NCBI RefSeq assembly: GCF_001317345.1
Contig: NZ_JXCG01000004.1
Location: forward strand, 1-64,000
DNA length: 64,000 nt
Source: Thermococcus sp. EP1
Lineage (GTDB): Archaea > Methanobacteriota_B > Thermococci > Thermococcales > Thermococcaceae
Direction of reading: 5' to 3'
The notes below the pieces were generated by a model, which made no database searches, was not told where the DNA came from, and saw only the letters and a list, made by a program, of their open reading frames with translations. The translations under genes and the position numbers were made by a program. This document shows, piece after piece, positions 29,079-30,406 of the stretch (within the stretch, counting starts at the first letter, position 1; each line of letters starts with the position of its first letter).

Positions 29079-29450
29079 TCACCTCCTTGCAAGGAAAAAT
29101 CCTAAGAATACTAAGCCTATGGTTATTATAACGTTTGCTGAGATATTTAAGACAGCAAGAAAGTGTTCTCGTTCCCTTAAAAGAGTAAACGTCTCATAGG
29201 AAAAAGTCGAAAAAGTGCTCAAGCCTCCACAAAAGCCTGTTCCAAAGAAAGCCCTCCAATTTGAAGAAACTTCATAGCCAAGGAAAATCAAGCCATAAAG
29301 GTAACCAAGCAAAAAACTGGCTACGCTGTTTACCAAAAGTGTACCTATAGGTAGATCCTTATAAACAGGAAGCATACCAGTGATACCATAACGAACTATA
29401 GCCCCCAGCATACCTCCAATGCCAACTGCTAGAAGTACTTTGAGATTCAT
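29079..29450 (-). CDS. crcB: fluoride channel CrcB/Fluc
   Basis: This four-helix membrane protein of about 123 residues dimerises to export F-. It carries [13 protein letters not shown] in helix 1, [17 protein letters not shown] (the pore Asn region) and [21 protein letters not shown] (the Phe box and Na+-site turn). ATG 29450 follows GGGGGTTT. It lies 11 bp downstream of the prenyltransferase-like gene and behind the same fluoride riboswitch. Confidence 0.95.
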
Positions 29451-29461
29451 TTTCAAACCCC

Positions 29462-30313
29462 CTACTTTCGAAAGTTCAAGAGATCGCTTAAAGTTCTAAG
29501 AGCCCTATAAGTATTCTGAAAGTTTGAGATACCCATCTCAAGACTTCTTCTAAAACCTCCATTTGGATTTTGAAGAGCTCGTATAAGTTGTATGTGAGCA
29601 TCTATGTAGCGTGATTTTTCACCAAGGAGTCTTAATCCTCTCACTGCATAGAAAGTAGGTTCTAAATATGGCGGAAGAGAGTAGGGAACTTCTGTAAAAC
29701 CTCCTCGAACCTCACACTTGTGAAAATGTCTTATTGTTGGAATCTCATATCCTAAGATATTAAGCGCAAATATTGCTTGATATGTCATAGTTGTCGTTGC
29801 TTGTTTTACTCCATACCCGCTTCCTTTCCTAAACATCTCGATGAATTCCTGTATTTTCTTTTTTTCTTCTGAGGAGGGCTCATAATCTATCGCATTAAAT
29901 GCCCTGAGTACCCAGTATGTGGCCTCAAGAGGTGTTGCAGTTCCAAATTCTTCACTCCCTCCAAGACCGATAGCAAATTGGCCTTTAAGAGGATTGTATT
30001 TTCTAAAAATGAGCTGCAAGCCTTCTTCTGCAAGATCTATTGCCCCCAAAATTGCAAGTCCTTCAATCGCCATAGATATTGCCACAACAGCTTGTTGGGG
30101 TTTTAACGAAGCATAAAGGAATTCTATTGTCTTTTCTTTCTCTGGAATTCTCGTACCTAAGAGAGTATAAGTCTTTACTGCATAATAAGTGTCGTTTATA
30201 TTTGTCTCATTCAACAAAGAGATGAAGCAATACCCACCGTCTTCGTGTCTTCTCTTTCCAAGATATTCTAAAACTGCTTTAATATTTACATAACTCTCAA
30301 GCTCCGAGCCCAT
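29462..30313 (-). CDS. prenyltransferase/squalene-cyclase-like alpha-toroid protein in the fluoride operon
   Basis: This 283-residue protein is built of helix-pair repeats typical of the protein prenyltransferase beta-subunit/terpene cyclase toroid: repeated G-G-Y/F turns (EDGGYCF, RGGFTEV, NGGFRR) and repeated D/T-x-Y-x-A helices (NDTYYAVKTY, EATYWVLRAF, EPTFYAVRGL, QNTYRALRTL). No clear zinc triad or cyclase DxDD is seen, so catalysis is doubtful. ATG 30313 follows GGAGGCGGTAGA. It is the first gene after the fluoride riboswitch and precedes crcB. Its role in fluoride response is not known to me. Confidence 0.8.
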   Translation of the reverse strand: MGSELESYVNIKAVLEYLGKRRHEDGGYCFISLLNETNINDTYYAVKTYTLLGTRIPEKEKTIEFLYASLKPQQAVVAISMAIEGLAILGAIDLAEEGLQLIFRKYNPLKGQFAIGLGGSEEFGTATPLEATYWVLRAFNAIDYEPSSEEKKKIQEFIEMFRKGSGYGVKQATTTMTYQAIFALNILGYEIPTIRHFHKCEVRGGFTEVPYSLPPYLEPTFYAVRGLRLLGEKSRYIDAHIQLIRALQNPNGGFRRSLEMGISNFQNTYRALRTLSDLLNFRK

Positions 30314-30320
30314 TCTACCG

Positions 30321-30406
30321 CCTCCTAAAGTTTTAGCGGAGAACAGGCGTCATCAGCCCTTAGTGGGCGGTTCGGGCCCGAAGCCCTGGGCGGACGCCAT
30401 CGCCCA
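30321..30406 (-). ncRNA. fluoride riboswitch (crcB motif) with expression platform
   Basis: On the minus strand the leader reads GGGCGATGGCGTCCGCCC, an insert hairpin GGGC-TTCG-GGCCC, then AACCGCCC, ACTAA, GGGCTGATGACGCC. This is the crcB-motif core. P1 is GGGCG/CGCCC, P2 is GCCC/GGGC, and the P1 loop GGCGTC (plus 30393-30398) pairs with GACGCC (30346-30351) as the pseudoknot. The TATA box (plus TTTTATAA, 30427-30434) places the transcript start at the first G of the aptamer. After it, CTCC (30338-30341) can pair with the ribosome binding site GGAG, suggesting translational control. CrcB is encoded downstream, as expected. Confidence 0.9.

What the first reader, a model, noticed from the sequence alone, without database searches (positions are those of the whole stretch)
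29079..30406. Fluoride riboswitch controls a prenyltransferase-like toroid gene ahead of crcB
The leader at 30321-30406 (minus strand) has the complete crcB aptamer, including the GGCGTC/GACGCC pseudoknot, and a transcript start predicted at its first base. The first gene behind it is not crcB but an alpha-toroid protein without obvious catalytic residues; crcB and DUF190 follow with 11- and 4-bp gaps. This places an uncharacterised protein in the fluoride response, possibly for membrane lipid or isoprenoid repair, or as a scaffold for the channel.
Basis: partly seen in the sequence, partly recalled or inferred. Interest (0 to 1): 0.8.

Follow-up and report, generated by a model that had tools for sequence, protein, structure and literature searches.

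The report
Fluoride switch blocks toroid start codon
In almost every Thermococcales genome a fluoride-sensing RNA sits directly in front of an uncharacterised ring-shaped protein gene, not the fluoride-exporter gene, and it appears to switch translation by pairing its own sensor core with the ribosome-binding site, start codon and first codons of that gene.

Summary
The leader is a fluoride riboswitch (Rfam RF01734, 50.4 bits). The first gene behind it is an alpha/alpha-toroid (PF00432), followed by crcB and DUF190.

The riboswitch-toroid pair is nearly universal in Thermococcaceae. The toroid is in 90/94 genomes and the switch in 88/94, with the switch directly upstream in 81 of 83 loci read. 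The switch tracks the toroid rather than crcB: in eight Pyrococcus-type genomes and G020 it stays with the toroid while crcB lies elsewhere or was not found, and seven separate crcB loci scanned with Rfam have no riboswitch.

Codons GGC-TCG-AAG are nearly invariant (77/77, 76/79, 74/74), while the next, CTN, varies freely. I infer a translational OFF state that fluoride dissolves.

Prior art: the placement upstream of TK0513 was published in 2014 (PMC4247193); fluoride-inducible translation in 2018 (Speed et al., not readable here). The toroid's biochemical role is unsolved; a CrcB scaffold looks unlikely. Overall: a new variant of a known kind.

The parts
30426..30433 (-). TATA box (TTATAAAA); implied transcript start about 30405
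   Evidence: sequence; TATA-like hexamer at similar spacing upstream of the aptamer in most of 81 homologous leaders
30337..30413 (-). Fluoride riboswitch aptamer, RF01734. P1 30405-30402/30391-30388; pseudoknot 30398-30393/30351-30346; P3 30368-30365/30359-30356
   Evidence: Rfam 50.4 bits, E 5.1e-11; pair counts with compensatory changes
30366..30386 (-). Aptamer insert hairpin (GGGCUUCGGGCCC) plus P3 5' strand (ACCGCC): the 'blocking' segment, mutually exclusive with P3 and the insert hairpin
   Evidence: MFE folds; 95.4% of cells paired with the start region over 78 sequences
30300..30326 (-). Target of the blocking segment: Shine-Dalgarno AGGAGG(CGGU), AUG (30313-30311) and codons 2-5 (GGC TCG GAG CTT)
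   Evidence: synonymous-site invariance of codons 2-4; 14-nt contiguous complement incl. G-U, 3 of 3000 shuffles as long
29462..30313 (-). alpha/alpha-toroid protein, 283 aa, first gene of the operon
   Evidence: PF00432; AlphaFold2 pLDDT 90.9; Foldseek to farnesyltransferase beta, TM up to 0.75, and to squalene-hopene cyclase, TM 0.65-0.68
29079..29450 (-). crcB, Fluc-type fluoride channel/exporter
   Evidence: PF02537 and TIGR00494 above their cut-offs
28694..29074 (-). DUF190 protein (weak PII-like similarity)
   Evidence: PF02641, E 2e-38

Best explanation
This is a translational fluoride riboswitch whose primary target is the toroid gene. Without fluoride, the aptamer's insert hairpin and the 5' strand of P3 pair with the Shine-Dalgarno sequence, the start codon and codons 2-5 of the toroid mRNA (about 19 base pairs in the window), which hides the ribosome entry site. 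Fluoride stabilises the pseudoknotted aptamer, which uses the same nucleotides for the insert hairpin and P3, so the start site is released and the toroid is translated. In this lineage crcB and DUF190 follow directly. The toroid is a soluble prenyltransferase/terpene-cyclase fold with conserved polar residues that I take to act in the fluoride response independently of the channel. Shown here: the riboswitch, its linkage, the complementarity and its unusual conservation. Inferred: the OFF/ON assignment and kinetics, and any activity of the toroid.
For: Rfam hit. Toroid in 90/94 and riboswitch in 88/94 genomes of the order; switch directly upstream in 81 of 83 loci read. The riboswitch stays with the toroid where crcB is elsewhere, and seven separate crcB loci have no riboswitch match. 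Start sequence ATGGGCTCG[A/G]AGCT in 77/81. Codons GGC 77/77, TCG 76/79, AAG 74/74, then CTN free; 85 other conserved 4-fold columns reach at most 0.725. In the window GGC is 11% of Gly codons and TCG 4.6% of Ser codons. Intact insert goes with intact start, Fisher p 1.3e-4. Window leader MFE -55.3 against shuffles -42.7, z -3.4. The intact-insert leaders folded put the start region into this helix. The fold still favours it at 85 C, by 5.5 kcal/mol in the window. Fluoride-responsive translation in T. kodakarensis is cited in PMC8241225 and PMC11077080.
Against: The alternative helix shows no compensatory double changes, only one-sided G-U-preserving ones, and does not beat shuffled columns. 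The aptamer structure does, so covariation supports ON more than OFF. Five sequences with an altered insert keep the start sequence, and G012 keeps it after losing most of the aptamer, so the start is not held by this pairing alone. In T. kodakarensis crcB has its own transcript start (PMC4247193), so crcB may not be controlled by the switch. Sequences are related, so the counts overstate independence. Pseudoknot and ligand energies were not modelled.
Confidence: 0.72

Rival explanations
1. The riboswitch works by simple Shine-Dalgarno masking through the short downstream stem (UUCUCC with GGAGG) or by the pseudoknot strand GACGCC pairing with GGCGG; the invariant start codons are kept for another reason, such as efficient initiation or the protein N-terminus.
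For: CUCC follows the aptamer in many leaders and can pair with GGAGG; the start sequence survives in leaders with altered inserts and in G012.
Against: The downstream segment is variable in length and sequence (CUCCGC, CUACUCC, CUGAAAGC), while the insert and start are nearly fixed. Protein-level constraint cannot explain invariant rare synonymous codons followed by a free CTN.
Confidence: 0.17
2. The two near-palindromic sequences (GGGCTTCGAGCCC and GGGCTCGAAGC) are DNA operators of a transcription factor rather than an RNA helix.
For: Each is close to self-complementary, and they are reverse complements of each other.
Against: In the window the copy in the aptamer (GGGCTTCGGGCCC) is a poorer palindrome but still pairs as RNA through G-U; the complementarity extends to ACCGCC/GGCGGU. 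The first copy lies downstream of the transcript start.
Confidence: 0.04
3. The toroid is a partner or scaffold of the CrcB channel and needs it to work.
For: crcB lies downstream in the same locus in 70 of 83 loci read.
Against: It is unlinked to crcB in Pyrococcus-type genomes and G020 and present without a crcB hit in G012; the toroid is broken in G077 and G080 while crcB is intact.
Confidence: 0.1
4. The toroid is a prenyl-diphosphate enzyme (transferase or cyclase) induced to repair isoprenoid metabolism under fluoride. This concerns the protein and is compatible with the best explanation of the switch.
For: Fold matches to farnesyltransferase beta and squalene-hopene cyclase; invariant polar residues.
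Against: The class II cyclase motif DxDDT aligns with NxNDT, lacking the acid Asp; no close sequence relative of known function.
Confidence: 0.2

Closest known systems
Fluoride (crcB) riboswitch of Thermococcus kodakarensis upstream of TK0513 (PMC4247193; Speed et al. 2018, AEM, cited in PMC8241225)
   Same: Same RNA class, same position before a gene that is not crcB, crcB next; fluoride-responsive translation reported for T. kodakarensis.
   Different: Described for one species; the report I could read names TK0513 without analysing it. The order-wide linkage, the separation from crcB in Pyrococcus and the constraint on codons 2-5 are added here. I could not read Speed et al., so part of the mechanism may be in it.
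Bacterial fluoride riboswitches (Bacillus cereus, Thermotoga petrophila)
   Same: P1, P3 and the pseudoknot of the aptamer.
   Different: The well-studied ones act through an intrinsic terminator (PMC11077080). Here the aptamer core itself would pair with the start region.
Protein farnesyl-/geranylgeranyltransferase beta subunits and single-domain squalene-hopene cyclases
   Same: alpha/alpha-toroid fold (TM 0.65-0.75); PF00432 repeats.
   Different: 13-18% identity; class II cyclase motif altered to NxNDT; family found only in Thermococcaceae.
Second Thermococcus fluoride riboswitch before a formate-hydrogenlyase-type operon
   Same: Same aptamer class in the same genomes.
   Different: No insert hairpin; the start region instead carries an extra GACGCC that could compete for the pseudoknot loop. 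This gene association for the class was noted by Weinberg 2010 (PMC2864571).

Membership tests
Fluoride riboswitch RF01734 | Score above the curated gathering threshold over the full model | tested here: met
   50.4 bits against 34, model 1-64
Fluoride riboswitch RF01734 | P1, P3 and pseudoknot with covariation | tested here: met
   98.7% of cells paired; 6 pairs with double changes, 0 of 500 shuffles as high
Fluoride riboswitch RF01734 | Binds fluoride and changes expression | not testable with these tools
   Reported for T. kodakarensis (cited in PMC8241225, PMC11077080)
PF00432 alpha/alpha-toroid superfamily | Repeat profile above cut-off and toroid fold | tested here: met
   51 bits against 26.5; model pLDDT 90.9; Foldseek matches to toroids
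Class II terpene / squalene-hopene cyclase | DxDD(T) catalytic acid motif | tested here: not met
   Aligned position is N38-x-N40-D41-T42, invariant in the 25-member alignment
Protein prenyltransferase beta subunit | Zn ligands (Asp, Cys, His) at the active site | not tested
   No residue-level structural superposition was available; sequence alignment is too short
CrcB/Fluc | PF02537 and TIGR00494 above cut-off | tested here: met
   98.6 bits against 32.9 and 90 bits against 80.45
Translational riboswitch with start-site sequestration | Alternative helix exclusive with the aptamer that covers Shine-Dalgarno/AUG | tested here: met
   Predicted in the intact-insert leaders folded
Translational riboswitch with start-site sequestration | Compensatory covariation of the alternative helix | tested here: inconclusive
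   95.4% paired but no double changes; does not exceed shuffles

The most novel reading that the evidence does not exclude
A fluoride riboswitch expression platform in which the aptamer's own insert and P3 strand pair into the coding sequence, so that the switch has fixed the codons and N-terminal peptide (MGS[K/E]L) of its target across an archaeal order; and the toroid, not CrcB, is the primary fluoride-response protein of Thermococcales, a CrcB-independent fluoride tolerance factor.
Probability: 0.35. Interest if true: 0.75.

Novelty: new variant of a known kind. Interest (0 to 1): 0.55.

Why it matters
T. kodakarensis carries the only natural archaeal riboswitch described as experimentally determined in PMC8241225 (2021), and its natural target is an uncharacterised protein. 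A switch that reads into codons 2-5 would explain a conserved protein N-terminus by RNA logic and gives a clean mutational test in a genetically tractable hyperthermophile. It would also warn users of this switch as an expression tool that the first codons of the native gene may be part of the device. If the toroid proves to be the main fluoride effector, it opens a fluoride tolerance route beyond export channels.

Tried and rejected
Covariation of the alternative helix gave no compensatory changes, so it is not used as support. A riboswitch at the separated crcB genes was sought down to E 1 and not found in seven loci. Known families for the toroid in NCBIfam: none. Toroid relatives outside Thermococcaceae were sought in the GTDB phylum and in genome contigs and not found. 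The CrcB-scaffold idea was weighed and ranked low. Speed et al. 2018 was looked up by DOI and is not held. The conserved block upstream of the Pyrococcus aptamer was followed and proved related to a multi-copy RNA element rather than to fluoride sensing.

Full report
Observation. The minus-strand leader is a fluoride riboswitch: cmscan gives RF01734 at 30413-30337, 50.4 bits, E 5e-11, full-length. Its 3' end lies 23 nt before the ATG of a 283-aa ORF (29462-30313) that hits Pfam PF00432. crcB (PF02537/TIGR00494) and DUF190 (PF02641) follow with 11- and 4-bp gaps. A TATA box at about 30430 places the transcript start at the first base of P1 (sequence); a TATA-like hexamer at similar spacing is seen in most homologous leaders.

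Conservation of the arrangement. The toroid occurs in 90 of 94 genomes of the order, and in 74 of 74 that are at least 90% complete and at most 5% contaminated. The riboswitch occurs in 88 of 94 and crcB in 82 of 94. In 83 loci with a toroid that I read out, 81 have the aptamer directly upstream; the exceptions are G080 (toroid decayed, riboswitch gone) and G012 (aptamer 5' half lost, crcB not found). crcB lies downstream in the same orientation in 70 of 83 loci, 15 of them close to the toroid as in the window; 43 loci have DUF6062 between.

The usual operon in the order is riboswitch - toroid - DUF6062 (PF19538) - two small coiled-coil proteins - crcB - DUF190. DUF6062 is found in 55 of 94 genomes, at coordinates directly behind the toroid in those I compared. 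The window and most of its genus lack these genes, so the tight toroid-crcB spacing is a feature of this lineage.

The switch follows the toroid. In the Pyrococcus-type genus (g3; the name is my inference from genome sizes) the riboswitch heads toroid - coiled coil - coiled coil - Trm5-like methyltransferase, while crcB-DUF190 lies elsewhere. G020 shows the same separation. Seven crcB loci that lie apart from a toroid (five from g3, G020, and the second crcB of G073) have no fluoride riboswitch match even at E up to 1; an eighth, L087, was inspected by eye only. Conversely G077 and G080 have a broken toroid with intact crcB. The two proteins are therefore separable, and the riboswitch tracks the toroid.

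How it probably works. The leaders show a striking complementarity. The aptamer carries an insert hairpin GGGCUUCGAGCCC followed by ACCGCC, the 5' strand of P3. The start region reads GGCGGU-AGAAUG-GGCUCGAAGCU, its reverse complement, with the AUG inside. The intact-insert leaders that I folded put the Shine-Dalgarno and start region into this helix at the expense of P3 and the insert hairpin. For the window the MFE is -55.3 kcal/mol against -42.7 +/- 3.7 for dinucleotide shuffles (z -3.4), and it is favoured by 14.8 kcal/mol at 37 C and 5.5 at 85 C over folding aptamer and start apart. The longest contiguous pairing, G-U included, is 14 nt in the window (3 of 3000 shuffles) and 13 nt in a relative (0 of 3000).

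Evidence that the pairing is selected. Across 80 toroid genes, codon 2 is GGC in 77 of 77 glycines, codon 3 TCG in 76 of 79 serines and codon 4 AAG in 74 of 74 lysines, while codon 5, where the complement ends, is CTT, CTA, CTC or CTG at will. Among 85 other conserved columns with at least four synonymous codons the top codon never exceeds 0.725. In the AT-rich window GGC is 11% of glycine and TCG 4.6% of serine codons. The window has Glu for Lys at codon 4 (GAG), which still pairs through G-U. By my pattern match all 71 intact-insert leaders have an intact start sequence, against 6 of 10 leaders scored as changed (p 1.3e-4). One of the ten, L080, in fact keeps the 11-nt complement, which would make it 72 of 72 against 5 of 9 (not recomputed).

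What speaks against it. The alternative helix has no compensatory double changes; all kept variation is one-sided G-U, and shuffles do as well. The aptamer structure does show real covariation. Some leaders with altered inserts keep the start, and so does G012. The counts are not phylogenetically independent. crcB codons 105-107 also show strong synonymous conservation of unknown cause, so such invariance is not by itself proof of this helix. I therefore put about 0.7 on the start-sequestration mechanism and 0.17 on simpler Shine-Dalgarno masking. The OFF-without-fluoride, ON-with-fluoride logic is inferred from the aptamer being stabilised by fluoride and from the T. kodakarensis reports.

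The toroid. AlphaFold2 gives pLDDT 90.9. Foldseek's best matches are squalene-hopene cyclases (TM to query 0.65-0.68) and protein farnesyl/geranylgeranyltransferase beta subunits (up to 0.75), at 13-18% identity. The class II cyclase DxDDT motif aligns with an invariant N-x-N-D-T, so the catalytic acid is absent. Yet over a hundred columns are nearly invariant, many polar and clustered after the GG turns, which suggests a binding or active site rather than a bare scaffold. The family was found only in Thermococcaceae. I cannot name its reaction; the most likely view is a soluble, channel-independent effector that binds a ligand in the toroid mouth.

What is known. PMC2864571 (2010) reported the crcB motif in bacteria and archaea and its link to formate hydrogen lyase genes. 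PMC4247193 (2014) mapped an 86-nt crcB RNA upstream of TK0513 'surprisingly' rather than TK0514 (crcB), and a separate start site for TK0514. PMC8241225 and PMC11077080 cite Speed et al. 2018 for a fluoride-responsive translational riboswitch in T. kodakarensis; that paper is not held. The placement and fluoride response are thus known. New here, as far as I could check, are the order-wide linkage, the Pyrococcus separation, the wider gene set, and the codon-level constraint that extends the switch into the coding sequence.

Verdict.

Noticed in passing
L090, L092-L095 (and L091, L096-L098, L100): A second fluoride riboswitch in more than a dozen Thermococcus genomes precedes an NADHdh / Proton_antipo / 49-kDa (formate-hydrogenlyase-type) operon. 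In the five leaders printed it lacks the insert hairpin, and an extra GACGCC lies between Shine-Dalgarno and start codon, which could compete for the pseudoknot loop.
   Followed up: partly
L075:566-642 and equivalents in L076-L081, L158: Pyrococcus-type leaders carry an additional stem-loop between TATA box and fluoride aptamer, whose outer stem changes on both sides between species. Its core CCGAAACYGGYAACGGGAGTAGG occurs up to 13 times per genome in 45 of 94 Thermococcales; other copies hit HgcC and sot0042 below the Rfam gathering score.
   Followed up: partly
L082 (G012:C1:1070400-1077000): A Pyrococcus-type genome in which the 5' half of the fluoride aptamer is missing and no crcB is found, yet the toroid is intact: a natural experiment on toroid expression without the switch.
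   Followed up: partly
window 29130-29138 and homologues: crcB residues 105-107 (Ala-Asn-Val) are encoded by near-invariant GCA AAC GTT across 78 genomes; no explanation found.
   Followed up: no
L061:4553-5020 and other c11 loci: DUF6062, a Cys-rich (CPVC, CYLC) protein of unknown function, is present in 55 of 94 genomes and lies directly behind the toroid, a guilt-by-association lead.
   Followed up: partly
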